The position numbers and the translations under genes are program-made. Source: Stappia taiwanensis (GTDB lineage Bacteria; Pseudomonadota; Alphaproteobacteria; Rhizobiales; Stappiaceae). From it: a stretch of 64,000 nucleotides of DNA. Location: NCBI RefSeq assembly GCF_014635285.1, contig NZ_BMCR01000003.1, positions 682,001 to 746,000 of the forward strand. Direction: 5' to 3'. Shown piece by piece: positions 41,489 through 64,000 of the stretch (position 1 is the stretch's first letter; each line of letters begins with the position of its first letter). Below the pieces are notes generated by a model that was not told where the DNA came from, made no database searches, and saw only the letters and a list, made by a program, of their open reading frames with translations.

Positions 41489-41578
41489 TCCATCCCCTTG
41501 AAATCGTTATTCCCTCTTGCTTTTCAGCCGCTTGCATACATGCTGCGCCTACAAAGACGCATACAAAATGAGCATGTC

Positions 41579-43189: not shown

Positions 43190-43302
43190 AAGTGGCTCCG
43201 GTCAAATGCTCAGAAACCAGTATTCGCGCATGAGAGACGGACCGTTAAGGTGCGCCACTCGCGTCCGCTACGCGGGTTGAGGCGTTCGCGCGGCCAGGAA
43301 GA

Positions 43303-48154: not shown

Positions 48155-48206
48155 CGTCAATGTCCTCTTGCGGCAATCTGGTGATTCAAATCCTTGGCGA
48201 CTGCTC

Positions 48207-49642: not shown

Positions 49643-50660
49643 CACCGCCCCCCTTCTTCCGCCCCTTGGCGGCCTTCTCCATCTCCTCCAACTGGGCGAT
49701 GTCGGCTTCATCCGCCGCAAGCGCCTCGGCGGCACGGCGGTTGGCATCGAACGTCTCGAACCGCTCGGCGGCGAGCTTCTGGGCCACGTCCATGCGTAGT
49801 CGCCCGGCATGGGTCAGCACGTCACGGTCGTTGAACGAGAGGAAGGCATCCAGCTTGTCGGCCCATTCGGCCATGGTGACCGGACGCCGCCGGCGCGCCT
49901 GATCCTCGGCATAGTCGAGATACATCACGACGATGCGGTTGAGTTCCTCGACCTCCTCGGCCACGAGGTAGTTTTTGGCGGTGCCGACATCGCCCTTGCG
50001 CACGACCGAGCCTTTCCAACTGGTCAGGCCCATGTTGGGAGCAATCGGGTCACTGCGGCTCTCGATCAGTTCGGCGGCCGTCTTGCCCGTCACCGCCCAG
50101 AGCATCTTGTTCTGCACCTTCTTGAAGAAGGCCTGCGCCTGTTCGGAGGTCTTGTCGTAGTCGATTGCGGTCGTATAGAGATCGCGCACCTTCTGATAGA
50201 AGCGCTTTTCAGAGGCGCGGATGTCCCGGATACGGGCAAGCCACTCGTCGAAATAGTCCCATTGCTCGGCCTGTTTCAGCCGGGCATCGTCCATGGCGAA
50301 GCCCTTGACCAGGTATTCGCGCAGGACGGACGTGGCCCAGCGGCGGAACTGGCTACCGCGCGGGGACCGGACGCGGTAGCCCACCGCCAGGATCACATCG
50401 AGGTTGTAGGCGTCGATGTCGCGTTCGACCTGCCTGGAGCCCTCGGTCCGAACTATCCGGAATTTCCGGATAGTTGCCTCCGGATCGCATTCACCCTCGG
50501 CAAAGACGTTATGGATGTGTTCGTTGATGGTGCGGACATCCTTGTCGAACAGCTCCGCGATCTCCTTCTGACTTAGCCAAGCCGTCCCGTCCACGGCCCG
50601 CAGGCCGATGGTCGCGGCACCATCGTCCGTGGTGTAGAGGATGATTTCGCCCTCAGACAT
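49635..50660 (-). CDS. RhuM family protein in the R-M operon
   Basis: A 341-residue protein of the RhuM family (Salmonella pathogenicity island 3 RhuM). Recognisable are WLSQKEIAELFDKDVRTINEHI near the N-terminus (DNA-binding-like), YNLDVILAVGYRVRSPRGSQFR and WATSVLREYLVKGFAMDD. The C-terminal part (FYQKVRDLYTTAIDYD) is helical and charged. It overlaps hsdM by eight bases and hsdS by eight, so it is a fixed member of the operon. RhuM genes often sit between hsdM and hsdS. The molecular role is unknown, though the N-terminus suggests DNA or regulator function. Confidence 0.9.
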   Translation of the reverse strand: MSEGEIILYTTDDGAATIGLRAVDGTAWLSQKEIAELFDKDVRTINEHIHNVFAEGECDPEATIRKFRIVRTEGSRQVERDIDAYNLDVILAVGYRVRSPRGSQFRRWATSVLREYLVKGFAMDDARLKQAEQWDYFDEWLARIRDIRASEKRFYQKVRDLYTTAIDYDKTSEQAQAFFKKVQNKMLWAVTGKTAAELIESRSDPIAPNMGLTSWKGSVVRKGDVGTAKNYLVAEEVEELNRIVVMYLDYAEDQARRRRPVTMAEWADKLDAFLSFNDRDVLTHAGRLRMDVAQKLAAERFETFDANRRAAEALAADEADIAQLEEMEKAAKGRKKGGGDA

Positions 50661-52170
50661 CGACGCCGAGCTCCTTCAGGTACCCGGCCATCTTCGCCCG
50701 CACCTCGGCAAGCTCGGCCTCGATCCGCACGATGTCCTTCTGCACGGCGGCGACGTCGATCTCCTCCTCCGGCTCGAAGGTGTCGACATAGCGGGGGATG
50801 TTGAGGTTATGGCCGTTTTCGGCGATCTCCTCGGGGCTTGCCCGATGCGAATACCGCTCGACCTCGGCGCGGGTGCTGTAGGTCTCCAACACCCTGGCGA
50901 CATGCGCCTCGTCCATCACGTTCTGGGTCTTGCCAGGCTTGAATTCCTTGCTCGCATCGATGAACAGCACGTCGTGTCGGTCCCCGTTCACGCCGCCTTC
51001 CTCGCGGGAGCGGTCGAAGATCAGGATGGCGACCGGAATTCCCGTGGTGGTGAACAGGTTGGCCGGCAGGCCGACGACGGCGTCAAGTAGGTTCTCCTCG
51101 ATCAGCTGCCGCCGGATGCGCCCCTCGGCCCCGCTCCGGAAGAGCACGCCATGCGGCACGATCACCGCGACCCGGCCGGATTGGCGCTTGGCGATCTCGA
51201 TCATGTGGGTGATGAAGGCATAGTCGCCCTTGGACTTGGGCGGCACGCCGCGCCAGAAGCGCTTGTACGGATCGCTGCCCGCATCCTCTGCGCCCCACTT
51301 GTCGAGCGAAAACGGCGGATTGGCGAGGACCACGTCGAAACGCATCAGGTGGTCACTCTCGACCAGCGCTGGGCTGTTGAGCGTGTCGCACCACTCGATG
51401 CGGGCGGCGTCCTTGGCATGCAGGAACATGTTCATCCGGGCCAGCGCCCAGGTCGCCCCGTTCACCTCCTGCCCGTAGAGGGCGAAGTTCTCGGACCCAA
51501 CTTCCTGCGAGGCCTGGATTAGCAGCGAGCCGGAGCCGCAGGCGGGGTCGCAGATCGTGTTTCCGGGCTGCGGCGCCGCCAGCTTGGCCAGCAGACGGGA
51601 CACGGCCGTGGGCGTGTAGAACTCGCCTGCCTTCTTGCCCGCATCCGAGGCGAAGCGCGAGATCAGGTAGATGTAGCACTCGCCGATGATATCCTCGGTC
51701 ACCCGGGATGGGCGCAGGTCGAGCGCGGGTTTGGCGAAGTCCTCAAGGAGGTTCTTCAGGCGACGGTTGCGATCCTTCGGGCGGCCGAGATTGGCCTCGG
51801 AGTTGAAGTCGATGTTGCGGAAGACGCCCTCGAGCTTGGCGCGGTTCGCATCCTCGATGTTTTCGAGCGCGATGTTGATCAGCTCGCCGATATTGGGTTC
51901 ACCCCGCTGGGCATGGAGGTCGTAGAAGCTGGCGCCTTCGGGGAGGATGAAGCGCTCACGCTCCAGCCGCCGGCGAATGCGAGCCTCGTCATCGCCATAC
52001 TGCTTGCGGTAGGTCTCGACATGATCGTTCCACAGGTCCGAGATGTACTTCAGGAACAACATCACCAGGATGTAGTCCTTGTAGCCTCCGGCATCGATGG
52101 CGCCCCGAAAGGTGTCGCACGCCGCCCAGGCGGTCTGATTGATTTGCTGTTGCGTGATCTTATCGGTCAT
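50653..52170 (-). CDS. hsdM: Type I R-M DNA methyltransferase subunit HsdM
   Basis: A 505-residue N6-adenine methyltransferase. An N-terminal helical HsdM_N domain (MLFLKYISDLWNDHVE) is followed by AdoMet motif I DPACGSG (208-214) and catalytic motif IV NPPF (284-287). FYTPTAVSRLLAKL precedes motif I as in all HsdM. It protects host DNA and forms the core of the R-M complex. It overlaps the single-TRD S-like gene by 11 bases and rhuM by eight. Confidence 0.95.
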   Translation of the reverse strand: MTDKITQQQINQTAWAACDTFRGAIDAGGYKDYILVMLFLKYISDLWNDHVETYRKQYGDDEARIRRRLERERFILPEGASFYDLHAQRGEPNIGELINIALENIEDANRAKLEGVFRNIDFNSEANLGRPKDRNRRLKNLLEDFAKPALDLRPSRVTEDIIGECYIYLISRFASDAGKKAGEFYTPTAVSRLLAKLAAPQPGNTICDPACGSGSLLIQASQEVGSENFALYGQEVNGATWALARMNMFLHAKDAARIEWCDTLNSPALVESDHLMRFDVVLANPPFSLDKWGAEDAGSDPYKRFWRGVPPKSKGDYAFITHMIEIAKRQSGRVAVIVPHGVLFRSGAEGRIRRQLIEENLLDAVVGLPANLFTTTGIPVAILIFDRSREEGGVNGDRHDVLFIDASKEFKPGKTQNVMDEAHVARVLETYSTRAEVERYSHRASPEEIAENGHNLNIPRYVDTFEPEEEIDVAAVQKDIVRIEAELAEVRAKMAGYLKELGVDV

Positions 52171-52759
52171 CAGCTATTTCCTTCGGGTCGGCCGCTTTTG
52201 CGGCCTTGCCGAGAATGGAGGTTACGAGGTCTTCCCGGCGCGCGGCGAGTTGGTGGAGCAGGCGCCCCTCCTGTCGAGCCAGGGCACTGAGTTTGATGAT
52301 GTGTTCTTGCGTCCGCAGGTCGGGAACTGGGATATCGAGGTTTTCGATGACGGTCATCGGGACCATCCTGAGGCTCGTGCCTTGCGCTTCCGCACCGAGC
52401 CTACGCTGCGCATCAGGGTGGTTGATCGCCCACGCGAGGTATTCGGGCAGGAGCTTCTCCCTGTCAGGGCGAATGATCACCAAAGGGACGATGACGACGA
52501 CGGGCTCGGGCAGTGGGTCGCAAATGGCGGCCGCAGTGTTCGGCGTCCCGCGAGAGCGAAAGACCACTTCCCCTCCGCGGACGAAGTAGTGGTCAGCCAG
52601 CTTGCCCAGTTCGTACCTCTGGAACGGAGCGGCTGGCGACTCGCCATCTGTTCCCACGTCACGCAACTGAAGTGCCGGCATGCCGCCCTCCGGCTGCGGT
52701 TCGAGCCTGCCTCGTGCCGTGAAACCGGAGTGGATGTCGCAAAGCGCAGCGAGTCGCAT
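52160..52759 (-). CDS. Single-TRD (half-size) HsdS-like protein
   Basis: A 199-residue HsdS-like protein with one target-recognition domain (ALCDIHSGFTARGRLEP, GGMPALQLRDV, VVFRSRGTPN) and one conserved helix region (IPVPDLRTQEHIIKLSALAR). Typical HsdS has two such units, and a complete HsdS is encoded in the same operon. Half-size S proteins can dimerise to make symmetric specificity. The ATG at 52759 follows AGAGGA that is partly inside an inverted repeat. It is the first gene of the R-M operon. It might give a second specificity or act as a regulatory subunit. Confidence 0.8.
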   Translation of the reverse strand: MRLAALCDIHSGFTARGRLEPQPEGGMPALQLRDVGTDGESPAAPFQRYELGKLADHYFVRGGEVVFRSRGTPNTAAAICDPLPEPVVVIVPLVIIRPDREKLLPEYLAWAINHPDAQRRLGAEAQGTSLRMVPMTVIENLDIPVPDLRTQEHIIKLSALARQEGRLLHQLAARREDLVTSILGKAAKAADPKEIADDR

Positions 52760-52767
52760 TTAAAATC

Positions 52768-52789
52768 CTCTGTAGGTCGCCTTACAGAG
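52768..52789 (-). promoter_or_regulatory. Inverted repeat over the RBS region of the R-M operon
   Basis: CTCTGTA-N8-TACAGAG, perfect 7-bp arms, ends nine bases before the first start codon of the operon. On the transcript the last arm runs into the ribosome site (AGAGGA). A possible -10 (TATCTC, 52787-52792) overlaps the upstream edge, and a TTGACT -35 lies at 52811-52816. The repeat could be an operator or a hairpin that hides the ribosome site. Confidence 0.6.
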
Positions 52790-53952
52790 ATATTTCAATT
52801 TGGTCGTGCAAGTCAATCCATTCTATTTGCTGTATGGAGACTACAGAGAATTTCTCTTGGCTGCATCCTTGGTCGAGAGCAGAGGCTGTTGCCTGGGCGA
52901 GGGGGAGTGGTTGACTCAATTCGAGTGGTGCAGAGACTCTGCAGCGACTCTCAGGAGAGGCGCAATCCTGTCGGTTGTGTCGTTATGTGCCTCGGCTTGG
53001 CGCATCTACCTGTCCGGGGATGGGGGAGAGGAGGGCGCCGGCACACAGGCAACAGGTCTTTGCCCTCGGCAATCCCGATATGGGGAAGCGTTTCTCGTTG
53101 TGCTGCGGAAGAATGCGGCGTTGCCGAGGATGCGCAGAAATCGCCCGTGGCTGGCTCCGTTGCAGTTTGAGCTCCAGGTGCTCGCAGACGTTCGGCTCGC
53201 TCCTGTGAGCTTCCCTGACGATCCTGGCGAAGTGTATTGCGGGAGCCGGCGAGTGATTTATGCCGCGCTCGTGCTCTGCATCTTCGCCGGTGCCTGTTGT
53301 GTGAACGTCAGACGCGGCCACGATCAGCGCATCACGGAACCTGTTTGTGCAATCTTGCGCAAGTGGTTCGCGGACGTGATACGGCCAACCTGAGGACCAG
53401 TCTGGCAGCATCATCCGGTCGATCTCGTGGATGTATTTTCCCGAGCGCGGATCTGTTTCTGCGTGTCCGTGAGATCTTGCTTCCGGATCAGTCATTTATT
53501 GCTGGGGCGTGTCTGCCAGCAAGCGAAGCGGCGGGTGCGACGGTCTCGGTGACCGTGGTTGACGGAAAACATGGAATTCGCGTGGACATAGCACGCACAT
53601 AATTCAACCTTTCGCGGGGATTTTGCCGGAAGTTGCAGCGTTTTTTTGAGCAGCAAACCGGCGTCTTTGGCGGATTTCCGGCTCAGCGTCTCGCCCTTTC
53701 TTGTCGGTAAGTTTCCGCGAGCGCGATCCTATTCAACCTTATTCAACTTAATTCCACCGCCAAGAGCTCCGGGGATAGGGTGCTCATCGCAGGTGGAGCC
53801 ATACTGCATCCCCCTCAAGAATGCCCGTTTCTTCTAGGACTTCGATGTTTTGTTCTGAATTCGGGTTTTCCCATCGTTTGACTGGAATAACACCCGACAG
53901 GTTGTTCCGCGTGTCCTAGACTCTTGCTCATCAACAATTCTGGAGTTCTTCG
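52790..53952. other. 1.2 kb without a recognised gene, between the R-M operon and the second integrase
   Basis: Frames of 170-200 codons are open on both strands (52800-53393 plus, 52983-53495 minus), but none shows a family motif, ribosome site or coding-like pattern that I can defend. The last 350 bases contain repeated TATTCAAC words (about 53730-53750) and no coding signal. It may be decayed mobile-element DNA. Confidence 0.4.
52830..52846 (-). promoter_or_regulatory. Second, related inverted repeat upstream of the R-M promoter
   Basis: CTGTA-N7-TACAG repeats the core of the element at 52768-52789 and lies just upstream of the predicted -35. Two like sites flanking one promoter suggest a dedicated repressor. 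Confidence 0.5.
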
Positions 53953-54684
53953 ATGAGTAACGGAAAAACCATCTCAGATGCTTGCAGAGCCTGGCTGAAG
54001 CGCTGCGAGCTGGACGAGTTGGAATGCGCCACCTTGCGCTCCTATCGCAATCACGTCGACCACCATATCGAGCCGGCAATCGGCGAGCTGTGCCTTGCCA
54101 GCCTCTCGCGCTCTGATGTGCGCGACTTCATCGACGACATGCTCGACAAGAACTCGCGAGCAATGACCGACAAGGTGCTCCGCTCGCTGCGCTCGGCGCT
54201 GAACGAAGCCCTGGACCGGGAGTGGGTCGACAACAATGTCGCGCTGTCGGTGAAGCTGCGTCGCTCGTCTCGCAATGCGCCCGATCGCGTGATCCCGACC
54301 AAGGAGGAAATCAAGACGATGCTGCGTGCGGCGCCGACCAAGCATCGCCCGCTGATCGTCACCGCGATTTATACCGGCATGCGCATGTCCGAGCTGCGCG
54401 GACTTCGCTGGGTAGATGTCGACTTCACGCGTTCGATCATTCAGGTGCGCCAGCGTGCGGATCGTTTCAACGAGATCGGCAAGCCGAAGTTCTCATTCCA
54501 CGCGCTGCGCCATGCCGCCGCCTCGCTCTTCATCGAGCAGGGTTGGCCGGCGAAGAAGGTGCAGACGATCCTCGGTCACGCGTCCATCACGATGACCTTC
54601 GACGTGTATGGCCATCTGTTCGACAATGCAGAGGACGATGTGAACCTCTTTGCCAAGCTCGAGGCAGATCTGGAGGCGGCTTAA
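53953..54684 (+). pseudogene. Shortened tyrosine recombinase (N-terminal and internal deletions)
   Basis: A 243-residue integrase-like protein. The core-binding part (CRAWLKRCELDELECATLRS) and the catalytic residues R144 (TGMRMSELRG), H183-x2-R186 (HALRH), H209 and Y219 (TFDVYGHLF) are present. Related integrases have about 70-80 more residues at the N-terminus. They also have about 60-70 residues between VRQRADRF and the HALRH box that are missing here: KPKFSFHALRH joins directly. The frame is intact, but the loss of the arm domain and of part of the catalytic fold makes function unlikely. Confidence 0.75.
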
Positions 54685-54739
54685 AGGGTGATCCGGTCCC
54701 AGATTTCGGCATTCTCGAGATGTTCTCGGAGCCGCTTGA

Positions 54740-54877
54740 GCTTCTTTCAAAGATTGTGCGTCTCTCGCTCGCCAGCCGGCGGTCATCAACCTTCTGTTTG
54801 CGCCGCGTATCGGTCGGCAAGTGGGGCTTGATACCTGCAAATCGTTCTTCCTGCAGCCAGAGGTGCTTCCGAGCCAT
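54740..54877 (-). pseudogene. N-terminal fragment of an IS5-family transposase
   Basis: From ATG 54877 the minus strand reads MARKHLWLQEERFAGIKPHL then PTDTRRKQKVDDRR, the conserved start of IS5-type transposases. Homology stops after about 40 residues (LASERRTIF), where the family continues into its GGRWVDAP region. No terminal repeats were found. It is the remnant of an old insertion. Confidence 0.72.
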
Positions 54878-55115
54878 CAACCTCCTTGAGGACCTCCGTT
54901 CTGGGGCTGGGCCGTGGAAGGGGCTCAGATCAAAAACGCTGTCCTGTCGTTGGGATGTCGTTGGTTGACAATTTACAATCATGGCGCGAATAGTGGCCGT
55001 CAAGAATTGTGGGTGCTGAGGCGTGTGCGTCGAAGCTGGCTTGTCACGCTCGGAAGAGCTTTGCCTGGCTGAGCGCAACTGCGGGGGTGGAGTGGCTGTG
55101 GCGCAGACGGTCGAC

Positions 55116-55740
55116 ATGAGCGATGAAGCCAGCGCCGTTGCGCCTGAGGCGGAGCTCCCTGAAAGTCAGATTGCAAGCGAAGCTGATAGACAGAGCGAGC
55201 GCCCGGTATCTGGCGCGCGCGTGCGGTTGCGGCTGGTACGCGATACGCAAGAAGACCTTGCCGCAGCGTTGTCGCTCGCCCGGAAGATGCACGCGCAAAC
55301 GATCTTTCGCGACAGCCCGTTCAGTGACGCCAAGGCGCAAGCGTTGGTTCGCCGTGCGATTGAACGGCCGGATCGGAGCGGGTTGATCCTGGCGGAGGCG
55401 CCGAGAGCGGGTGCATCCTGGTGGGCCGCTGGAGAGCCGGAACCGCCGGAGGGGGGGGGCTCTCGCAGGGCTGGCTTATGTACAGGCGGGGGAATACTTT
55501 CTTTCTGATGGGGATCTGGTCGCAACCGTGCTTACGCTCAATATCACCCCAGAGATCGTACGGACGCCGCTCGGCGGGCGCGTCGCGTTGAGGTTGGTTC
55601 GCGCTGTGCGCCGTTGGTCGGATGCGCGTGGCTGTCGACGCCTTCTGGTGCATGCGACCAGTGGTGAAAATCCAGCGAGGACGGATCGCTTCTTCCGTCG
55701 CTGTGGATTCAGAGTAATTGGTCGGAACTATGTCTTTTGA
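55116..55740 (+). pseudogene. GNAT-type acetyltransferase, frameshifted in a G9 tract
   Basis: Two frames make one GNAT-like protein. From ATG 55116 (MSDEASAVAPEAEL) the first frame covers VRLRLVRDTQEDLAAALSLA and ends shortly after the run of nine Gs at 55451-55459. The second frame continues with ALAGLAYVQAGEYFLSDGDL, VATVLTLNITPEIVRTPLGG, the acetyl-CoA region RVALRLVRAVRRWSDARGC and ends at FFRRCGFRVIGRNYVF. Eight Gs would restore one continuous protein of about 207 residues. The state could be a dead gene or a slippage-switched one. The end overlaps the next AT-rich gene. Confidence 0.7.
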
Positions 55741-56053
55741 GTCGATTATTATTTCATATGTTGTTGATATATATTTATTTTTTGTTTCAACTTTTTTCGT
55801 TCTTACATGCTTATCTGCATTTAAAGAATTTCGTAAATTTACATCTGAAAATAATATATATATATTAATATTTTTTATACCTGTAATTTCTTGCAGGATG
55901 CTTAACATAAAAGGGAATCATATTATTTTTGTGGTTGCGAATTTTATTATTTTAATAATACTTACAATTATTCCGGCTTTATTCTTGTCTGTCGATTTTA
56001 TAAGTTTATTCTATCCAAATTATTTATATTATTCGAATAAAATATCATATTAA
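55730..56053 (+). CDS. AT-rich gene for a small membrane protein
   Basis: A 107-residue protein with three strong hydrophobic segments (SYVVDIYLFFVSTFFVLTCL, IYILIFFIPVISC, FIILIILTIIPALF) and few charges. Base composition is far below the rest of the window (my estimate is about a quarter GC), so it was probably acquired from a low-GC source. The ATG at 55730 lies inside the last codons of the frameshifted GNAT gene. It is followed at 19 bases by another orphan gene with a good ribosome site. No family recognised. Confidence 0.6.
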   Translation: MSFESIIISYVVDIYLFFVSTFFVLTCLSAFKEFRKFTSENNIYILIFFIPVISCRMLNIKGNHIIFVVANFIILIILTIIPALFLSVDFISLFYPNYLYYSNKISY

Positions 56054-56071
56054 ATTGGAGGGGCATTAATC

Positions 56072-56344
56072 GTGTCTGATAACAAATTTATCGTTGGAAC
56101 CGTCGGTATTAATGCTTCTGTCCCGCTTTTTGGGTCAGGCGAGTTTGCTCTCGCTTACGATGCAATTAAGGATAGGCATGCGATTACTCAATCATATCAG
56201 GTTAGTATATCTGCCGTTAACGCACTTATTGATTCTGGTAAAATATCTAAAGATCAGGTAAACTTTGATTTACTGCAAAGCCTTCCCGGAATACTTGGTG
56301 ATCCTCGTTCTGTTTCTGCGTTGGGGCGGCTTCGAAAATGTTAA
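56072..56344 (+). CDS. Orphan glycine-containing protein, AT-rich
   Basis: A 90-residue protein from GTG 56072 with TTGGAGGGGC upstream. The N-terminal half (FIVGTVGINASVPLFGSGEF) looks like beta strands, and the rest is polar with helix-like stretches. It ends in a seven-base overlap (ATGTTAA) with the next gene. It could be the first part of one protein broken by a frameshift. No relative recognised, and no signal peptide is obvious. Confidence 0.5.
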   Translation: MSDNKFIVGTVGINASVPLFGSGEFALAYDAIKDRHAITQSYQVSISAVNALIDSGKISKDQVNFDLLQSLPGILGDPRSVSALGRLRKC

Positions 56345-56640
56345 AATTGGGTATAAGTGCAGGAAGAGGGGCGTTTAACGGTGATCTGAACGACATGAGT
56401 GGCGTGTCTTTTGTTTTTGGTTTGCAGGGTTTGGCGGGGGTGTCATTAGTTGTACCCGCGAATTACAAAGGGCCTTTAAATCTAAATGAAATATTGAAGG
56501 CGCCGGGTGCGGGGCTCATATTTTCGGCTGGTGTGAAAGCCGGAGTGATTGCTGATGTGTCAATGACGAATGTGTATGAGTTGCCCTTTTGTTTTGATGG
56601 AAATTCGAGCATAAGCTTAAGTAATAATAGAAAAAAATAA
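56338..56640 (+). CDS. Orphan glycine-rich protein overlapping the previous gene
   Basis: A 100-residue protein rich in Gly, Val and Ser with strand-like repeats (KLGISAGRGAFNGDLNDMSG, SFVFGLQGLAGVSLVVPANY). No clear ribosome site precedes ATG 56338, so translation may be coupled to the upstream gene. The strand pattern of both pieces is similar, as expected for one beta-rich protein split by a frameshift. An IS630 element begins 46 bases after its stop. Function unknown. Confidence 0.5.
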   Translation: MLKLGISAGRGAFNGDLNDMSGVSFVFGLQGLAGVSLVVPANYKGPLNLNEILKAPGAGLIFSAGVKAGVIADVSMTNVYELPFCFDGNSSISLSNNRKK

Positions 56641-56685
56641 TCAGCGATGTTGGTGTGGGCGATTCTGTTCTTTCCTTCGACCCTA

Positions 56686-57740
56686 GAGCATTTCCCGCTT
56701 ACTCCGGCTCATATCCCGCCGCAGTGAAGTAGTTTCTCGCCTCACGGGGCGTGACCGCGTCTATGGCAGACGCGGTTGCCGCCCATAGGTCCTCGACGGT
56801 TCTTGCGGCGGCCTTTTTAAGGAGGGCCTTGATCTTTGAGAAGGCCATCTCGATCGGATTGAAGTCGGGGCTGTAGGGCGGCAGGAAGAACAACCGCGCG
56901 CCTGTGACTTCGATAGCGTGGCGGATCACGGCGGGTTTGTGGGCAGGCAGGTTGTCCATGACAACGATGTCTCCCGGCTTCAATGTTGGAGCCAGGACCT
57001 GCTCGACATAGGCCAGGAATGCCGTGCCGTTCATGGCGCCTCCCAGCGTCATGGGTGCTGTGATCCCCGACAACCGCAAAGCGCCAACAAATGTCGTCGT
57101 CTTCCAGTGTCCATGCGGAATCGGTGCGCGACACCGTTCACCGCGGGGCGAGCGCCCGCGAATTCGGGCCATCTTGGTGGAGACACCAGTCTCGTCGATG
57201 AACACCAAACGCTCTGGGTCGAGATCGGGCTGGGCCTCGAACCAACTCTCCCGCCGTCGCTTCACATCGGCGCGTTCCTGTTCGCTGGCGTGCGCTGTCT
57301 TTTTTTGAACGTGATGATGTTGCGGGCCAGGAAGCGATCAACAGAACATCGTCGATGTTCTCAGACCGAATGTCTCGTGCAGATGGTCCACGATTTCCGC
57401 GAGAGTGATATCGGGCCTTGCCTCCACCAACTCGAGGATCTCATCGCGAAACGGCTCAAGCGGACTGCGCGGCGAACGAGGCCCCATCTTCTCAGGTTCG
57501 ATGCGACCGGTCCGTCGATACCGCTCCATCCAGCGGATTGCCGTCGCCTCCCCAACACCAAACCGCTGAGCTGCGGCACGACGGGACATTCCACCTTCAA
57601 CGGCATCAATCAAGCGCTTGCGTAGGTCAATCGATAAAGGTCGCGTCATGAAGGCTGGCCTCCATGTCCAGCCCTCAGTTTGAATCACAATTCGAGATCA
57701 AAGGGAATCCAACCCGATTCAGTCTTTTCGGGAAATGCTC
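56686..57740 (-). mobile_element. IS630-family insertion sequence
   Basis: A 1055-bp element bounded by the perfect inverted repeats GAGCATTTCCCG and CGGGAAATGCTC. It is flanked on both sides by TA (56684-56685, 57741-57742), the target duplicated by IS630 elements. It carries one transposase region on the minus strand. Confidence 0.92.
56699..57649 (-). pseudogene. IS630 transposase, orfA/orfB with two frame changes
   Basis: orfA starts at ATG 57649 (MTRPLSIDLRKRLIDAVEGG, helix-turn-helix AAAQRFGVGEATAIRWMERY) and stops at 57338. orfB (56699 to about 57320) carries the DDE domain: [21 protein letters not shown] and [18 protein letters not shown]. The stretch joining them ([15 protein letters not shown]) is in a third frame. 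The run of seven As (minus strand, 57300-57306) is a normal slippage site in this family. The other shift, near 57343, looks like a one-base insertion that would inactivate orfA. Transposition is therefore probably lost. Confidence 0.8.
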
Positions 57741-57742
57741 TA

Positions 57743-58204
57743 AATCTCGGACGCGACGTGGCCCCCTCCCGCGTCTTTGGGTCGCGCCGAACCGGAACTT
57801 CCGGCGGTGATATCTCATGCGGCGGAAGCCGCCGATGAGCTTACAGGTCGACGAATTCGCTGCCGTTGTCGACCCTGATCGTCTTTGCATAGCCGATCAG
57901 GCCGCACATGCGTTCGCGCGTTTGCACGACATCGTCGCCGCGACAGGCGAACCGCAGGTCGGTCGCCGGGCAGGATGGGCGCAAAACCGGGGACAGATCG
58001 ACCTGGTCACTTTGGCCTAAACGAATATGACTAAAGGTTGCAATATAAAAAAATTTCGCGTATTTAGTGAAATGTGGCGTGTGCATTGAAGCGTGACACG
58101 TTTGGCCCCGCTCTGGATATGTAACGAAAAGAATATTTTATTATTTAAATAAAAAGCATGGATGCCGCAGGGGGATTGAAAAGCTTTCATTTAAGGGGGG
58201 AGAT
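57743..58204. other. Spacer with IS remnant and AT-rich leader of the 58.2 kb cluster
   Basis: The left half holds the IS3 fragment and a small GC hairpin (GGCGGCTTCCGCC, about 57817-57829). From 58021 to 58195 the DNA is AT-rich with poly-A and ATTTTATTATTTAAATAAAA stretches, the likely promoter of the cluster. The strong AAGGGGGGAGA ribosome site of the first gene follows. Confidence 0.55.
57841..57960 (-). pseudogene. IS3-family transposase fragment
   Basis: The minus strand reads GDDVVQTRERMCGLIGYAKT then IRVDNGSEFV, the strand carrying the second catalytic aspartate of IS3-type rve integrase domains (PKTIRVDNGSEF in relatives). Upstream and downstream parts of the transposase are missing or unrecognisable. 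Confidence 0.7.
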
Positions 58205-59314
58205 TTGAAGGTAATTTATATTCGCGGCGAGTCCAATCCCAACGAGAGGCGGACTCCGATCACACCGCAAGACGCCGAACGACTGATCGAAATGGGTGCC
58301 CAAGTAAAGGTGTCCACTTCGCAGGGGCGATGCTTTTCTGATGACGCCTTTCGGGAGGTGGGATGCGTCGTTGAGGCGGCGGAAAGCTGGCGCGAACCCG
58401 GGATAGGGGCCGGCGAAGAGAAGCCGGCCGATACGCTTACGATCGGCATCAAGGTCCCGGCGTTGGATGGGAAACCAATGCGCGGCGCGCATCTATTCTT
58501 TGCCCATCAGTACACGCGCAACCGTATCCTTCTGGAAAAACCGACCGCGACCCATATGCTAAACGCGCTGCGAAAGGGCGGCGGCGTGCATTATGACATG
58601 GAGTTCTTGGCCGATGAGAACGGGGCCCGGATCACCGCTTTTAGCACTATCGCTGGGTTTGTGGGCACCGCAATTGCGATCGTGCGCACTTGCGAAAAGG
58701 TGCGCGGGGATGCAGGCCCAGGCACACTTTATGCCATTCCCACCTCCACCGCGGTGCTGCGCGAGAGCGCGGAGCGCGAGATTGCCCATACCCGGCCATT
58801 GAAGATCGCCGTTATCAGCCCCTCGGGGGCCTGCGGGAAAGGAGCGTGTGCGCTGCTTTCCGCGCTTGGTCTTGAGTGGACCGCTATCGGACACCGCGAT
58901 TTGGGCATTCGCGTCAGTGACGACGACCTCTTTGACTTCGATCTGTTGATTAATTGCATGGCGGTGGACGAGGCGACGCCGGCGATCCTCTCTCCACCGA
59001 CGGATGCGCGCCCGGTCCGCCTCGCGGTCGTGGCAGATATTGGTTGCGAGACCAATGACAATAATCCGATCCGCTTGCGCGATGGCCTCTCGAGTCTCGA
59101 TGCGCCGTTCCTTCTCAAGGATATGGGTGGGGGGCGTGTTTGCGACATACTGGCCGTTGATCACTTGCCAGCGCTGACCCCACGCGAAAGCAGCGAAGAA
59201 GTAAGTCGTCAGCTCTTTCCACTTCTTTCGAATTACATATCTGGGAGTGATCTTGATATTCCATGGGTAAGGGCCAGGGAATTGTTCGAAAGATCAATTT
59301 GCTTACTAAAGTAA
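58205..59314 (+). CDS. Saccharopine dehydrogenase (lysine-forming)-like opine-type enzyme
   Basis: A 369-residue enzyme with an AlaDH/PNT N-terminal domain and a Rossmann part, resembling NAD-dependent, lysine-forming saccharopine dehydrogenase (fungal Lys1). Matching segments are NERRTPITPQDAERLIEMGA, FAHQYTRN, GGGVHYDMEFLADENGARIT and AGFVGTA. The catalytic pair of Lys1 appears conserved as K83 (IGIKVP) and H101 (FAHQY). The start is TTG 58205 with GGGGGGAGA. Such enzymes couple or split an amino acid and a 2-oxo acid. As the first gene of a five-gene cluster it may make or process an opine-like intermediate. Confidence 0.82.
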   Translation: MKVIYIRGESNPNERRTPITPQDAERLIEMGAQVKVSTSQGRCFSDDAFREVGCVVEAAESWREPGIGAGEEKPADTLTIGIKVPALDGKPMRGAHLFFAHQYTRNRILLEKPTATHMLNALRKGGGVHYDMEFLADENGARITAFSTIAGFVGTAIAIVRTCEKVRGDAGPGTLYAIPTSTAVLRESAEREIAHTRPLKIAVISPSGACGKGACALLSALGLEWTAIGHRDLGIRVSDDDLFDFDLLINCMAVDEATPAILSPPTDARPVRLAVVADIGCETNDNNPIRLRDGLSSLDAPFLLKDMGGGRVCDILAVDHLPALTPRESSEEVSRQLFPLLSNYISGSDLDIPWVRARELFERSICLLK

Positions 59315-59365
59315 TGCTTGAGTAAATATTTATATATAACCGCGATATCACCGGAGGGAATTAAC

Positions 59366-60475
59366 ATGACCGCTGCGTTCGCGTGCTTCATTATTGCGTC
59401 ATTTCTTCTTTTCCTGGATGCGCTTTACCATCGGGTGGACCTCTCGAAGGTGACGGCTCCGCCAGCCGGCACGGATATCGTGCGCCACTATCGCAAGCAG
59501 TTCCGGGGAATGAGCTACAAGCCGCTCGATGCCTTTCTCGGCCCGCTCGCCTATGTGTGGACCTACCTTTTCATCATCTCCGCCGTGCTGGCATTTCACT
59601 ACACCGACTACATCGCGGTGAAGATCGCGGCGGTGCTGTTTGTCACCGGACGTTTCCGCAGTCTGCAGGAGATCGGCCACCACGCCGCACACGGCTCTCT
59701 CGGGCCAAGTCGGCGCTTCAACGAGATACTGACCAACCTGCTCTACCAGTTCCCGGCTTTCATGCCGGAAATCCGCCGCCGGCATCAGGTTCATGTCGTC
59801 GAGCACCACCATGCGGTCAATATGGACGGCGATCCAGACCGGGTGGAGATGGAGGATAAAGGCTTCGTGCCGGGCCTGACGCGCACTCAGTTCTGGCTGG
59901 GCGTGTTCCGCCCGCTAACGCCGATGGGCCTGATCGAGCGCCTGCGGGAATGCTGGGGCTACCTGAAGGCCGACATGTGGAACCTCAATCTGGTACTGCG
60001 GCTTGCCTCGGTGGCGACCGTCGTCGCCCTGTTCCTCACTTTCGGCTTCTACTGGGAGCTTCTGTTCCTCTACGTGGTACCGGTGCTGTTCACCTATCCT
60101 CTGGCCTACTGGATCGCCCATATCGCGCTGCATCGCTGGTATGCGACCTGCGAGGAGGAGATCCCTTATCACGAGCGGGAGCTGAAACTCGGCCGGCCGA
60201 CGGATTTTCCCGGCCTGCTCGGCGCGCTCGTCAAACACAACGTCTTTCCCTATGGCGATTCCTATCATCTGGCACACTCACTCTTTCCCTCCGCGCGCTG
60301 GAACTACCTGCCGGCCATCGACGCGCTGATGAAGCGGGACTGCCCCGAATATGCTAATCACGGCAGCCGCGGGCTGTTCTTTGGCAGTGGCGGCAAGCCC
60401 TCGGCGCTGGATGAGCTGCGGGAAAGGATGGTGGGCGGTGGTGATCTCCGCCTCGCTCCGGCGCGAGCGACCTGA
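59366..60475 (+). CDS. Membrane fatty acid desaturase/hydroxylase-like di-iron enzyme
   Basis: A 369-residue integral membrane enzyme of the desaturase superfamily. All three histidine clusters are present: GHHAAHG (H105, H106, H109), RHQVHVVEHHH (H140-H149) and YHLAHSLFP (H301, H304). Four or five spans can be seen (residues 4-20, 57-95, 215-255). The ATG at 59366 has a CGGAGGGAA site. The substrate is not necessarily a lipid; several members hydroxylate or desaturate small molecules. It is flanked by amino-acid-type enzymes. Confidence 0.85.
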   Translation: MTAAFACFIIASFLLFLDALYHRVDLSKVTAPPAGTDIVRHYRKQFRGMSYKPLDAFLGPLAYVWTYLFIISAVLAFHYTDYIAVKIAAVLFVTGRFRSLQEIGHHAAHGSLGPSRRFNEILTNLLYQFPAFMPEIRRRHQVHVVEHHHAVNMDGDPDRVEMEDKGFVPGLTRTQFWLGVFRPLTPMGLIERLRECWGYLKADMWNLNLVLRLASVATVVALFLTFGFYWELLFLYVVPVLFTYPLAYWIAHIALHRWYATCEEEIPYHERELKLGRPTDFPGLLGALVKHNVFPYGDSYHLAHSLFPSARWNYLPAIDALMKRDCPEYANHGSRGLFFGSGGKPSALDELRERMVGGGDLRLAPARAT

Positions 60476-60486
60476 TTTCTGGCGTG

Positions 60487-60523
60487 CCGAGCCCGGGGTG
60501 TCGCCACAGCACTTCGGGCTCGG
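60487..60523 (+). terminator. Stem-loop between the desaturase and racemase genes
   Basis: Perfect 9-bp arms CCGAGCCCG and CGGGCTCGG with a 19-base loop are followed by TTCTTT, 12 bases after the desaturase stop. It may attenuate or process the transcript inside the cluster. Confidence 0.5.
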
Positions 60524-60597
60524 TTCTTTGCGCCAGTTCTTTTTCACAAGCCCCTTTTTAACCCTCCTTTCTGCTCTCAAAGAGCCAAGGTGCCCAC

Positions 60598-61659
60598 ATG
60601 GCCACTTTTCTTGTCAACGTGTCGAAAATTGAGCGAAATCTCGACGTGATCCGCGCTCAAGCGCGCGCCCGCGGCATCGATTTCGTGTCGGTCGTCAAGT
60701 CATTCCACGATTCCGCGCAGTTGATGCGCCTGTTCGACCGGCGCCGTCCTTCTTATCTGGGTATGTCCAAGCTCGCGCTTGCTGAGAAATTCCAGGCCGA
60801 AGTGGTGAGCCCGATCATGATGACCAGCATTCCCCGCCCCGCCGATGCCGCGCGCGTGGTGCGGGTCGCCGATGTTAGCCTCAACAGCAATCTGGAGACC
60901 ATCGCCGCGCTCGACCGAGCGGCGGGGGAGGCAGGCACGCGCCATGAGGCGATCGTGATGATCGACGTGGGAGACCTGCGCGAGGGAATCCTGCCGCATG
61001 AGACGACCGGCTTCGTGCGTGCCATCACCGAGCGCGGCTTCAAGAATTTCTCGATCCGCGGCATCGGCACGAACTACGCCTGCGCCAACGGGGTGGAGCC
61101 CTCCACCCGCAATCTGGAGATGATCTATTCGCTGGCCCGCGAGATCGGCGACAGTTATGTCGAGCGCCCCTGCGTCTCGCTTGGCGGCTCCTCGATACTC
61201 AACTGGTTGGACAGCGAATATCTGCGCGACTGGCCGACTCAGATCCGCATCGGCCAGAGCATTCTTCTGGGTACGATGCCGGTGGTGGACACGGCTGCGC
61301 CGGGCCTTTTCACGGACACCCTGGTCTTCCGGTCGACCATCCTGGAGCAGGCGTTGAAGCCCTCGGCGCCGAGCGAGCCGGTGGGGGCCGATGCGATGGG
61401 TGCTGTCAACCGGCGGTGCGACCGCGGTTTCCGCCGCCGCGCGATCCTCGATTTCGGAGTTTCCGACACTGACCCCAAGGCCCTCTTGCCCTGCGATCCG
61501 GGCATCTCGATCGTCACCGCCAATTCCGATTACACCATCGTCGACGTGACGAATTCGAACCAACCCTACGACGTGGGCGACACGGTCGACTTCATTCCCA
61601 AGTACCGGGCGATGCTGCAGGGGTTCATCTCGCCCTACTTGGAAAAGAAATATCAATAG
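60598..61659 (+). CDS. PLP-dependent alanine/ornithine racemase family enzyme
   Basis: A 353-residue fold-type III PLP enzyme of the alanine racemase N-terminal superfamily, close in layout to ornithine racemase/YhfX-type proteins. The PLP lysine is K34 in FVSVVKSFHD. Phosphate-binding and active-site segments include GIGTNYACANG and VSLGGSSILNWL, and a C-terminal beta domain begins near DTLVFRS. It is predicted to racemise or epimerise an amino acid, perhaps a basic one such as ornithine or lysine, or to perform a retro-aldol step. The ATG at 60598 follows the sequence CAAGGTGCCCAC. Confidence 0.82.
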   Translation: MATFLVNVSKIERNLDVIRAQARARGIDFVSVVKSFHDSAQLMRLFDRRRPSYLGMSKLALAEKFQAEVVSPIMMTSIPRPADAARVVRVADVSLNSNLETIAALDRAAGEAGTRHEAIVMIDVGDLREGILPHETTGFVRAITERGFKNFSIRGIGTNYACANGVEPSTRNLEMIYSLAREIGDSYVERPCVSLGGSSILNWLDSEYLRDWPTQIRIGQSILLGTMPVVDTAAPGLFTDTLVFRSTILEQALKPSAPSEPVGADAMGAVNRRCDRGFRRRAILDFGVSDTDPKALLPCDPGISIVTANSDYTIVDVTNSNQPYDVGDTVDFIPKYRAMLQGFISPYLEKKYQ

Positions 61660-61700
61660 AAACAAGAATTGATCATCCAGCCGGGATAGGAGCCACCGCA

Positions 61701-62654
61701 TTGGCCGATCAGAACCAACCGACGTTCGATATGAGGCGCATCGCGGACCGCCCAGTGTCCGGGACGCCCGCACGTCGGGACTACCTTTCCCCCGAGCTGG
61801 ACGGGCAGTGTCTTCCCGTGGCCGTACTGGAGGGCGGCGCGCCCGGACCAACCGTCTGCGTCTCGGCCGGGTTGCACGGGTCGGAATATTGCGCGCTGGA
61901 AACAGCGCAGCGGCTTCTGCGGCTCGATCCGGCTTCGTTGCGCGGCCGGTTAATAGTGCTGCCGCTGGTCAACCTAGCTGCCTTCGCCGGGCGCGCGACC
62001 TACGTCAATCCGCAGGACGGGCTCAACCCCAACCGCGTCTTTCCCGGCAGCGCCGGAGGCTCGTCCAGCCACAGGATCGCCGACTGGCTGACGCGCGACG
62101 TGTATCGGCACGCGGACTGCATACTGGACCTTCACTCTGGCGATGTCAGCGAATATGTCAGCCCCTTCTCGATCTTCCTGCACGACGATCCCCGCTCGCG
62201 CGAACTGGCTCGGGCAGCAGGTCTCGATTTCGCCATCGGCCTCGCCCCCGGCGGGATGAGTATCGATGGGGCCGCCGCCTTCGGCGTGCCCGGCGTCATC
62301 CTGGAGGCCGGAGGCGCTCTCGTGCGTGAGGACAACGTGGTCGACATCCTCTACGGCGCAGTGCTGAGGGCGCTCGCCGCTGCCGGCGTCATCGATGATG
62401 TGGGCGGAGAACCTAGCCCAGCCCGCGTCATTCGTACCCCTATCACAAGTCTCGCCCCTCATCATGGCATCTGGTATCCGGACAACGAAGTTGGCGCGTT
62501 TCTGGAAACAGACGCGGTGGTGGGGCGAATTCGCGATTATTTCGGCCATGAGACGGCCGTCATCCGCACTCCCAAGCGCGGCTTTCTGCTCTATCAACTC
62601 GTCGGCATGCCCGTGAATGAGGGAGAAGTCCTTTGCTGGATCGGCGAGACCTGA
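61701..62654 (+). CDS. Aspartoacylase/succinylglutamate desuccinylase-like zinc deacylase
   Basis: A 317-residue M14-type zinc hydrolase. Zinc ligands are H59 and E62 (HGSE) and H145 (LDLHSGD). LNPNRVFPG (around N111-R112) is the substrate-binding arginine motif. The C-terminal beta-barrel (SLAPHHGIWYPDNEVGAFLE, VGRIRDYFG) is normal. It would remove an acyl group from an N-acyl amino acid, or hydrolyse an amide or ester of one. The start is TTG 61701 with AGGAG. Its stop overlaps the exporter start (TGATG), so the two are coupled. Confidence 0.85.
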   Translation: MADQNQPTFDMRRIADRPVSGTPARRDYLSPELDGQCLPVAVLEGGAPGPTVCVSAGLHGSEYCALETAQRLLRLDPASLRGRLIVLPLVNLAAFAGRATYVNPQDGLNPNRVFPGSAGGSSSHRIADWLTRDVYRHADCILDLHSGDVSEYVSPFSIFLHDDPRSRELARAAGLDFAIGLAPGGMSIDGAAAFGVPGVILEAGGALVREDNVVDILYGAVLRALAAAGVIDDVGGEPSPARVIRTPITSLAPHHGIWYPDNEVGAFLETDAVVGRIRDYFGHETAVIRTPKRGFLLYQLVGMPVNEGEVLCWIGET

Positions 62655-63628
62655 TGAGTGCCGCAGGGGAAGGTGGCCGGAAGGGGCAGCATCCGGTGCG
62701 AAGGCAGCATCAAAGCCGGCATCAGGGGGCGGGCGAGGGGCTCGCGGAAAGCGTGACGGCGACGGCGCTGCTCACCTTTGCCATGGCACTTTCCGGCACG
62801 GTCGGCGTACTCGTGGTCGCCTCGGGGCTATCCTCGATCTCGGCAGTGTTCTTCCGCTGCCTTTTCGGCGCGCTGGCGCTGTCTGCCTGGTGTATTCTGC
62901 GCGGCCGCTTCCGGCCGTCATCCATTCACCGGAGCAACATCTCCATCGTGGCGGTGAGCGGGCTGTTTCTGATCTTTAACTGGGTGGCGCTATTCCAGTC
63001 GGTGCATTTCATTCAAGTTGGTCTATCCTTTGTCATCTACCACCTGCAGCCGTTCTGGATCGTTCTGATCGGCGCGGCGCTTCTTGATGAGGCGCTGTCG
63101 CGGGTAAAACTGGTGTGGATCGCGTTTGCCTTCGCTGGGCTGGTCCTTGTCATCGGCCCGCGCATCAACACTGTCTCGGCTGACTGGACACTGGCGGCCG
63201 GCATCGCCCTGGCGCTCATCGCCTCCATCCTCTATGCAGGTTCCACCCTCACCGCCCGGCGCATCACCGATGTGGACCCATCCTTCCTGGCGATCGTCCA
63301 TTGCATCATCGGCATGGTCGTGTTCTCGCCGGTGCTCGTTGGTTTCCTGTGGGCCGAGGTCTCGCCGGTCGGCTGGGCCTGCCTAATCAGTCTCGGCATC
63401 GTGCAGACGGGCGTCGTCTACACGATGCTTTATGCGACCTACCCGAAGGTGCCCACTGCCACCATCGCAGTGTGCGCGTTCCTTAACCCGATCACCGCGC
63501 TTGTCTCCGATTACCTTGTCTATGGCCACGCCATCACGCCGGTTCAGGGCGCTGGTGTCGCAATCATCATGATCGCCGAACTGGGCGTCACTCTCGGCTG
63601 GTGCGGACGCACCAGCACAAGCAGCTAG
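62654..63628 (+). CDS. EamA/DMT family transporter
   Basis: A 324-residue drug/metabolite-type transporter with ten predicted spans in two EamA repeats (first repeat ALSGTVGVLVVASGLSSISA, second SILYAGSTLTARRI). The first 40 residues are polar and basic. The ATG at 62654 overlaps the previous stop by one base (TGATG). EamA proteins commonly export amino acids and metallophores such as pseudopaline. It is the last gene of the cluster and suggests that its product leaves the cell. Confidence 0.88.
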   Translation: MSAAGEGGRKGQHPVRRQHQSRHQGAGEGLAESVTATALLTFAMALSGTVGVLVVASGLSSISAVFFRCLFGALALSAWCILRGRFRPSSIHRSNISIVAVSGLFLIFNWVALFQSVHFIQVGLSFVIYHLQPFWIVLIGAALLDEALSRVKLVWIAFAFAGLVLVIGPRINTVSADWTLAAGIALALIASILYAGSTLTARRITDVDPSFLAIVHCIIGMVVFSPVLVGFLWAEVSPVGWACLISLGIVQTGVVYTMLYATYPKVPTATIAVCAFLNPITALVSDYLVYGHAITPVQGAGVAIIMIAELGVTLGWCGRTSTSS

Positions 63629-63697
63629 GATCTGAAGCCATAATTGGATTTGCGAATGAACGCTTCTGTGCTTCACTTGCGGCATCGAAGATGAACC

Positions 63698-64000
63698 ATG
63701 GAGCGTTTCGATCTTAGGGATGTCGAATGGGACCTGATCCAGCCCCTGCTCCCTACGCCACCATCTACAACTGCTTCAGCAGCAGGGCCAAGGCGGGCGT
63801 ATGGCTACGGATCTTCGAGGAGCTTGCCGAGCAATCCTCGGTTCCATCCAGTTCTCCGACGGTTCGATGATCCGTGCCCACCAGCACCCTGTCAGCGGTG
63901 AAAAGGGGATGAAGCTCACGCCATAGGTCGGTCTCGTGGCGGATCGAGTAACACTATCAACGCGACGGTGCATGTCCGTGGCCAGCCGATGGCGATCAAC
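63698..64000 (+). pseudogene. Broken IS5-family transposase at the window edge
   Basis: MERFDLRDVEWDLIQPLLPT starts a typical IS5-type transposase at 63698. After a deletion the text continues in other frames: TIYNCFSRRAKAGVWLRIFE, then SMIRAHQHPVSGEKG, and at the edge GRSRGGSSNTINATVHVRGQ. The large central part is compressed, and at least two frameshifts are needed. The reading continues beyond the window, so the right end is not seen. Confidence 0.75.

What the first reader, a model, noticed from the sequence alone, without database searches (positions are those of the whole stretch)
58205..63628. Five-gene cluster that looks like an undescribed amino-acid-derived metabolite pathway
A saccharopine-dehydrogenase-like enzyme with its catalytic Lys/His kept, a three-His-box membrane hydroxylase/desaturase, an ornithine/alanine racemase-like PLP enzyme, an aspartoacylase-like zinc deacylase and an EamA exporter are co-oriented. 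They have short spacers and one TGATG overlap, and sit behind an AT-rich promoter between IS remnants. No NRPS, PKS or transcription regulator is present. I know of no described cluster with this combination. A possible logic is to join or release an amino acid and an oxo acid, set D-configuration, oxidise, deacylate and export. The product could be an opine-like metallophore, signal or antimetabolite, but that is inference.
Basis: partly seen in the sequence, partly recalled or inferred. Interest (0 to 1): 0.78.

Follow-up and report, generated by a model that had tools for sequence, protein, structure and literature searches.

The report
Mobile five-gene amino-acid tailoring cluster
Five neighbouring genes really form a conserved, mobile set that probably oxidises, reshapes and exports an unusual basic amino acid; the searches made here found no paper on it, and its product is unknown.

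Summary
The five genes are real and intact, and the set recurs. Rhizobium sp. AC27/96 has the same five families in the same order. Pseudovibrio axinellae has five in a row, reordered, with an alanine-dehydrogenase-like protein in place of the saccharopine-dehydrogenase-like one. Rhizobium sp. RU33A keeps hydroxylase plus racemase, followed by methyltransferase, AsnB-like and LysE genes.

The 'desaturase' groups beside GntB-model proteins (XcnN, RtxC-like), whose named members act on amino acids or an arginine side chain. The nearest characterised families handle Lys, Arg, Orn or diaminobutyrate, but no equivalog cut-off is reached. Best reading: a horizontally moved pathway that makes and exports an oxidised, probably D-configured, perhaps opine-type basic amino acid. 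Shown: families, synteny, recurrence. Inferred: substrate, order, product. It recalls opine-metallophore logic but fails that family's defining features. A catabolic rival is real: the deacylase's best relative outside these clusters sits in a TetR-MFS-amidohydrolase operon. New variant of a known kind.

The parts
58205..59314 (+). saccharopine-dehydrogenase-like enzyme, 369 aa, TTG start; Lys83 and His101 (catalytic pair), Arg16, Arg142 and Asp319-His320 aligned with the same residues of the yeast enzyme; six extra residues directly after FAHQYT and an FST motif, shared with AC27/96
   Evidence: catalytic roles recalled
59366..60475 (+). membrane FA_desaturase-superfamily oxygenase, 369 aa; histidines 105, 109, 143, 147, 148, 256, 301, 304 invariant in the 14 rows aligned
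60598..61659 (+). fold-III PLP racemase-like enzyme, 353 aa, Orr-like (247 bits, cut-off 480); Lys34 invariant in four cluster copies
61701..62654 (+). AstE/aspartoacylase/DoeB-like zinc deacylase, 317 aa, TTG start; His59, Glu62, His145, Glu202 kept in three cluster copies
   Evidence: metal-site and catalytic roles recalled
62654..63628 (+). EamA/DMT exporter, 324 aa; start overlaps the deacylase stop (TGATG)
58030..58204 (.). AT-rich leader with GGGGGGAG before the TTG start; no + strand sigma70-like site found
56699..57688 (-). upstream IS630-type transposase in two frames (DDE_3 and HTH)
63698..63901 (+). downstream IS4/5-type fragment (DUF4096 at 17 bits, below the 34.3 cut-off)

Best explanation
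A compact, horizontally moved biosynthetic operon that converts a basic amino acid (lysine, ornithine, arginine or a close relative) into a small exported metabolite without NRPS or PKS. Proposed work split: the Orr-like PLP enzyme sets or inverts the alpha carbon; the membrane enzyme related to GntB/XcnN/RtxC hydroxylates or desaturates the carbon chain; the AlaDh/PNT-fold dehydrogenase joins the side-chain amine to an oxo acid (2-oxoglutarate for the SDH type, perhaps pyruvate for the AlaDH-like Pseudovibrio version), giving an opine-type compound; the zinc deacylase removes an N-acyl group or opens a lactam; EamA exports. Shown: gene content, families, kept catalytic residues, recurrence in other genomes, mobile setting. 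Inferred: substrates, order, stereochemistry, product. The opine step is held at about 0.35, the wider 'modified basic amino acid for export' at about 0.45-0.5.
For: Same five families in the same order in Rhizobium sp. AC27/96 (identity to the window: SDH 46, HYD 72, RAC 49, AST 41, EamA 50%). Five families in a row in Pseudovibrio axinellae. Hydroxylase plus racemase with other tailoring genes and a LysE exporter in RU33A. Of the 4 members known here of the hydroxylase group, 4 have an Orr-like neighbour, 4 an amino-acid-type exporter in the set (3 EamA, 1 LysE), 3 an AlaDh/PNT protein and 3 a deacylase. Hydroxylase and racemase trees give the same branching for window, AC27/96 and RU33A. 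The neighbouring hydroxylase group scores 296-374 bits on the GntB model: XcnN-like 296, two next to EamA genes 304 and 353, RtxC-like 322, G072 374. Best-matching curated or solved relatives act on Lys (SDH), Arg (GntB), Orn (Orr) and diaminobutyrate (DoeB). XcnM/XcnN change an arginine side chain and RtxC completes rhizobitoxine.
Against: No protein reaches an equivalog cut-off, so every substrate is a guess; for the dehydrogenase the best NCBIfam model is transhydrogenase alpha at only 19.9 bits. The window SDH has six extra residues just after FAHQYT and a Ser where the four other SDHs aligned have the first glycine of the NAD loop; it may not use lysine or 2-oxoglutarate. Pseudovibrio's dehydrogenase is not an SDH (E 0.22 to the window's; alanine dehydrogenase is its best match); its racemase (22-23%) and EamA (24-25%, E 0.001) are only family-level matches, and the racemase tree does not place it. 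The window hydroxylase scores only 78 bits on the GntB model, less than the Pantoea-type group (88-92 in the three scanned). No acyltransferase or ligase in the set explains the deacylase. The deacylase's best relative outside the clusters lies in a TetR-MFS-HDAC operon, which looks catabolic. No expression or metabolite data exist here.
Confidence: 0.45

Rival explanations
1. Xenocoumacin-like oxidative route: the desaturase-like enzyme oxidises the side chain of arginine, ornithine or lysine, the product closes to a cyclic imine, and the dehydrogenase reduces it to a cyclic (proline- or pipecolate-like) D-amino acid that is exported. No opine is formed.
For: XcnM (called saccharopine dehydrogenase) and XcnN (desaturase-like) convert xenocoumacin 1 to 2 by oxidative cleavage of the guanidino side chain (passages of PMC5055758 and PMC5688692). 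The XcnN-like protein belongs to the group beside the window hydroxylase.
Against: The XcnM-like protein has no AlaDh_PNT_N domain, only sub-threshold Rossmann matches, so no shared Pfam domain with P0001. RU33A has the hydroxylase and racemase without any SDH at E 1e-3.
Confidence: 0.2
2. Salvage or catabolic operon: an N-acylated or opine-type basic amino acid is deacylated, racemised, oxidised and split by the SDH to feed lysine or ornithine pools; EamA is a safety valve.
For: The best non-own deacylase match in 385 class genomes (G1643, E 1e-94) lies in TetR-MFS-HDAC-deacylase followed by a BPD_transp_1 permease; TetR (41%), MFS (63%) and HDAC (67%) of that operon match the operon divergent from the AC27/96 cluster. 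Putative SDHs in azaserine/triacsin clusters are not crucial and are thought to supply a precursor (PMC10445470 passage).
Against: A hydroxylase/racemase core with differing tailoring genes and exporters (RU33A, Pseudovibrio) is more typical of biosynthesis (own knowledge); no importer in the operon; TetR/MFS/HDAC homologues absent from the window, L015 and L022; an oxygenase of the GntB/RtxC kind would be unusual in opine catabolism (own knowledge).
Confidence: 0.2
3. True opine-type metallophore: the exported product chelates a metal and is taken back up.
For: Racemase, oxo-acid dehydrogenase and EamA or MFS exporter all occur in staphylopine/pseudopaline-type clusters (PMC7438024 passages).
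Against: No NAS, CntM-type dehydrogenase or importer domain in the five window proteins, and none seen by eye in the AC27/96 and Pseudovibrio five-gene sets. In that survey the racemase type has an MFS exporter and the EamA type lacks the racemase; odds lowered from 0.07 to 0.05 on rereading this.
Confidence: 0.05
4. Decaying island: an acquired, partly redundant set with no present function, at a contig end between IS remnants.
For: IS630 and a weak IS4/5 match, contig end 525 bases past the window, a loop change and lower GC3 in the SDH gene; none of 13 same-genus genomes has a strong hydroxylase match (two weak).
Against: All five frames are open with catalytic residues kept and coupled genes; the same order persists in AC27/96 at 41-72% identity.
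Confidence: 0.08

Closest known systems
Staphylopine / pseudopaline opine-metallophore clusters
   Same: racemase for a basic amino acid (in one type), opine dehydrogenase with species-dependent oxo acid, EamA or MFS exporter
   Different: dehydrogenase of another family (AlaDh/PNT), no nicotianamine synthase, no importer; extra oxygenase and deacylase; racemase together with EamA matches neither of the two main types in that survey
Xenocoumacin xcnM-xcnN pair
   Same: dehydrogenase called saccharopine dehydrogenase plus a desaturase-like enzyme acting on an arginine side chain; XcnN-like protein in the neighbouring group
   Different: XcnM-like protein lacks AlaDh_PNT_N; acts on a PKS/NRPS product (PKS and NRPS domains beside it); no racemase or deacylase named in the passages seen
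Rhizobitoxine cluster (rtxC)
   Same: non-NRPS amino-acid antimetabolite in rhizobia with a desaturase as last step; an RtxC-like protein beside Aminotran_5, Cys_Met_Meta_PP and LysE genes lies in the neighbouring group
   Different: built by RtxA aminotransferase/sulfhydrylase; no SDH, racemase or deacylase among the rtx genes described in the passages seen
GntB, L-arginine gamma-hydroxylase of the guanitoxin pathway (NCBIfam NF041365)
   Same: best curated model for the window hydroxylase (78 bits)
   Different: cut-off 380 not reached; no other Gnt model was hit by the five proteins
NAD saccharopine dehydrogenase, L-lysine-forming (yeast 2q99)
   Same: near full-length homology, catalytic Lys/His and the DH motif kept
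   Different: six extra residues after FAHQYT and FST in place of FGYW-type residues, shared only with AC27/96 among the six sequences

Membership tests
Opine metallophore (staphylopine type) | CntM-type opine dehydrogenase | tested here: not met
   the only dehydrogenase matches AlaDh_PNT_N alone; CntM is called a defining feature in PMC7438024 (passage)
Opine metallophore (staphylopine type) | nicotianamine synthase-like enzyme | tested here: not met
   no such domain in any of the five proteins; rest of the genome not tested
Opine metallophore (staphylopine type) | EamA or MFS exporter | tested here: met
   PF00892, 95.6 bits
Opine metallophore (staphylopine type) | importer in the cluster | tested here: not met
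   none among the five genes of 58205-63628
GntB arginine hydroxylase | NF041365 score of at least 380 | tested here: not met
   78.1 bits
Amino-acid-acting branch of the FA_desaturase superfamily | histidine boxes and grouping with GntB/XcnN/RtxC proteins to the exclusion of lipid desaturases | tested here: inconclusive
   eight invariant His in 14 rows; GntB is the best NCBIfam model, DesB far weaker (78 against 20 bits); but the 14-row tree is midpoint-rooted and holds no lipid desaturase
Ornithine racemase Orr | NF040742 score of at least 480 | tested here: not met
   247.4 bits; window, AC27/96 and RU33A racemases form their own group (100/100) on a long branch
Saccharopine dehydrogenase (NAD+, Lys-forming) | homology with catalytic Lys and His | tested here: met
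   (roles recalled)
Saccharopine dehydrogenase (NAD+, Lys-forming) | activity with lysine and 2-oxoglutarate | not testable with these tools
   needs the enzyme; insertion beside the catalytic His makes it uncertain
DoeB deacetylase | equivalog score (TIGR02994, 402.7) | tested here: not met
   73.4 bits; superfamily AstE_AspA_cat met
XcnM/XcnN system | dehydrogenase homologous to XcnM | tested here: not met
   no shared Pfam domain above cut-off; direct pairwise or structural alignment not run; identity of L073 as the xcn locus is inferred
Rhizobitoxine cluster | rtxA-type aminotransferase plus sulfhydrylase | tested here: not met
   absent from the five proteins

The most novel reading that the evidence does not exclude
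The operon makes a new class of exported opines: D-configured, C-H-oxidised side-chain opines of lysine or ornithine, built by a modular pathway in which the oxo-acid module is exchangeable (SDH type for 2-oxoglutarate, AlaDH type for pyruvate) around a hydroxylase/racemase core that another Rhizobium decorates with methyltransferase and AsnB-like enzymes instead. It would be opine chemistry evolved independently of Ti-plasmid opines and of CntM metallophores.
Probability: 0.2. Interest if true: 0.75.

Novelty: new variant of a known kind. Interest (0 to 1): 0.5.

Why it matters
Small amino-acid metabolites made without NRPS or PKS are easily missed by genome-mining tools (own knowledge), yet include signals, antimetabolites and metal chelators. 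This set gives a testable seed: a hydroxylase/racemase pair found together in four alphaproteobacterial genomes, two of them named Rhizobium, with differing side modules. It may also widen the amino-acid-acting part of the desaturase superfamily, and it suggests that saccharopine-dehydrogenase and alanine-dehydrogenase folds can replace each other in opine-like chemistry.

Tried and rejected
Considered and rejected as filing: opine metallophore, rhizobitoxine, guanitoxin, xenocoumacin conversion and plain saccharopine dehydrogenase (see membership tests). Considered: the hydroxylase as a lipid desaturase; less likely because GntB is its best model and DesB is far weaker, but no lipid desaturase was put in the tree.

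Led nowhere or weak: PDB search with the racemase (best E 0.15) and the hydroxylase (best 0.43). SDH profile in 30 genomes of genus g305: none. AlphaFold model of the hydroxylase from four rows had mean pLDDT 66, so no fold search was made. Promoter scan gave no + strand site. Paper searches found no paper; one found one, a genome survey seen in the listing only. One search (N5-carboxyethylornithine idea) gave nothing useful; the relation of that synthase to alanine dehydrogenase is recalled and untested. No paper was read whole: PMC10367076, PMC5055758, PMC5688692, PMC7438024, PMC3222319 and PMC10445470 were seen as passages, the rest as listings.

Unread or partial: of the stretches I asked for, L017-L019, L056, L057, L059, L072, L074 and L075 were not read, nor most loci that the genome search added by itself. 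Of the 8 weaker matches in the family of AC27/96 only G813 was read; of the 6 in the family of G720 G1027, G1162 and G1247 were read. Of the 66 non-own genomes with deacylase matches, 4 neighbourhoods were looked at; my overlap filter hid the deacylase ORF in three of them, so those neighbour checks are incomplete (G1643 was redone). The genome-contig scan used two short patterns, so 3 loci is a lower bound.
Full report
WHAT IS THERE. The window lies at G000:C3:682001-746000 of a 4.42-Mb genome. The contig ends at 746525, 525 bases past the window. Five open, co-oriented genes fill 58205-63628. By Pfam and NCBIfam: AlaDh_PNT_N / saccharopine-dehydrogenase-like (58205-59314, TTG); FA_desaturase (59366-60475); Ala_racemase_N, Orr-like (60598-61659); AstE_AspA_cat (61701-62654, TTG); EamA (62654-63628). 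Gaps are 51, 122 and 41 bases, then an overlap. The longest-ORF starts of genes 2 and 5 (59318, 62633) are less likely; AC27/96 shows the same deacylase/EamA coupling. GC is 0.58 for the first gene and 0.61-0.65 for the others, against 0.66 for the first 40 kb.

SURROUNDINGS. Upstream are an IS630-type transposase in two frames and, further left, a phage-type integrase; downstream is a weak IS4/5 fragment. No sigma70-like site was found on the + strand of 57700-64000. In the relatives search, none of 13 same-genus genomes had a strong hydroxylase match (two weak, E 1.3e-15 and 7.6e-8); 8 of 61 genomes matched at E 1e-3, and only the own one and G035 (2.9e-77) strongly. The set is therefore a probable recent arrival.

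RECURRENCE. One scan of genome contigs with the hydroxylase pair gave 3 loci from 66 pattern matches. (1) Rhizobium sp. AC27/96, L020: the same five families in the same order; identities 46, 72, 49, 41 and 50%. (2) Pseudovibrio axinellae, L021, taken to be G035 and read as L015: hydroxylase, AlaDh/PNT, racemase-like, EamA, deacylase, with overlapping ends. Hydroxylase (36-39%) and deacylase (36%, E 5e-57) are clear relatives; the racemase is 23% (E 1e-10) and the EamA 24% (E 0.001); the dehydrogenase has no significant match to the window's (E 0.22) and is nearest to alanine dehydrogenase (8hye, E 2.5e-50), below the alaDH cut-off. Its DHIP stands where 8hye has ANMP; the SDHs aligned have DHLP or DN-type residues near their end. 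(3) Rhizobium sp. RU33A, L022: hydroxylase (54-57%) and racemase (41%), then methyltransferase, AsnB-like and LysE genes; no SDH in that genome at E 1e-3. Wider sampling with the hydroxylase profile: order, 3 of 397 at E 1e-20 including the own genome; phylum, 1 of 398 (own); family of AC27/96, 10 of 247 at E 1e-15, of which only AC27/96 itself is of the cluster type by score (G860 at 4e-80 has the Pantoea-type cluster; the other 8 are at 3e-21 to 4e-17, one of them read); family of G720, 6 of 372 at E 1e-8. In these samples the cluster is rare.

THE HYDROXYLASE FAMILY. The window protein's best curated model is GntB, L-arginine hydroxylase (78 bits; cut-off 380). Relatives score 296 (XcnN-like, beside PKS and NRPS domains in L073), 322 (RtxC-like, beside Aminotran_5 and Cys_Met_Meta_PP genes in L054), 304 and 353 (two proteins each next to an EamA gene, L061 and L060) and 374 (L055). 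Eight histidines are invariant in all 14. In print, XcnM/XcnN cleave the guanidino side chain of xenocoumacin (passages, PMC5055758, PMC5688692), RtxC completes rhizobitoxine (passage, PMC3222319), and GntB makes the linear precursor of a cyclic arginine (passage, PMC10367076). So an amino-acid substrate is the best guess. The tree is midpoint-rooted and has no lipid desaturases, so this placement is relative only.

THE OTHER ENZYMES. Window and AC27/96 dehydrogenases keep the yeast catalytic Lys and His and the DH motif (roles recalled). They share six extra residues next to the His and FST in place of FGYW-type residues, not seen in the Photobacterium, Paraburkholderia and Streptomyces homologues aligned. 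This argues for an altered substrate. The window copy also has Ser-Pro-Ser-Gly where AC27/96 has Gly-Ala-Arg-Gly in the NAD loop. SDH homologues occur in other clusters: Streptomyces with SidA-like and tRNA-ligase-like genes, Paraburkholderia with ATP-grasp and MFS; in azaserine/triacsin they are reported as not crucial and probably for precursor supply (passage, PMC10445470). The racemase keeps Lys34 (PLP role recalled) in all four copies. Window, AC27/96 and RU33A branch alike in the hydroxylase and racemase trees, which fits co-inheritance. The deacylase keeps the metal-site residues (roles recalled).

EVIDENCE THAT CUTS THE OTHER WAY. A deacylase profile matched 67 of 385 class genomes, own included, at E 1e-30, so that family is common. 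The best non-own match (G1643, E 1e-94) lies in TetR-MFS-HDAC-deacylase, followed by a BPD_transp_1 permease; its TetR, MFS and HDAC are 41, 63 and 67% identical to the operon divergent from the AC27/96 cluster. That operon reads as uptake and deacetylation. It is not in the window, L015 or L022. So in AC27/96 the deacylase may link the cluster to a salvage function, and the catabolic rival keeps about 0.2.

MECHANISM. See Best explanation. The parallel with staphylopine-type clusters (racemase, opine dehydrogenase using pyruvate or 2-oxoglutarate, EamA or MFS; passages of PMC7438024) concerns logic, not descent. The defining CntM-type dehydrogenase and NAS are absent among the five, and in that survey racemase goes with MFS while the EamA type lacks the racemase.

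NOVELTY. Searches of open-access full text found no paper describing this combination; most subscription papers are not covered. I call it a new variant of a known kind: a small non-NRPS amino-acid metabolite cluster with a desaturase-like oxidase.

Noticed in passing
L061:3617-5540 (+) and L060:6471-8361 (-): Two-gene units of a GntB-model desaturase-superfamily protein and an EamA exporter in two genomes of the G720 family: perhaps the smallest hydroxylate-and-export module.
   Followed up: partly
Resembles kanosamine-type chemistry (recalled).
   Followed up: partly
L098:2861-6856 and L020:3404-6640: Recurring TetR-MFS-HDAC-like operon, with an AstE-like deacylase in G1643 and divergent from the five-gene cluster in AC27/96.
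   Followed up: partly
L073:6675-9170: The probable xcnN/xcnM pair: the XcnM-like protein has only sub-threshold Rossmann matches, so its printed 'saccharopine dehydrogenase' label is loose.
   Followed up: yes
L031:5992-10550: Paraburkholderia sabiae conjugative plasmid: SDH-like, ATP-grasp and MFS genes in a row. The azaserine cluster table also lists ATP-grasp and MFS genes right after its two SDHs.
   Followed up: no
L026:4751-7122, L027:4778-7092, L028:4850-7101: DUF1611 plus Orr-like racemase pairs on Aliiroseovarius, Vibrio and Phaeobacter plasmids.
   Followed up: no
L022:1627-4756: Beside the RU33A cluster, divergent genes for two dCTP-deaminase-like proteins and a PPDK_N protein; link unknown.
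   Followed up: no
window 53953-54684 and 40000-60000: Phage-type integrase (77 bits) and a fall in GC from mostly 0.63-0.70 to 0.54-0.64, suggesting an island wider than the finding.
   Followed up: no
window 58205-63628 against L020: The hydroxylase is 72% identical to AC27/96 while its four neighbours are 41-50%; unexplained (stronger constraint or recombination).
   Followed up: no
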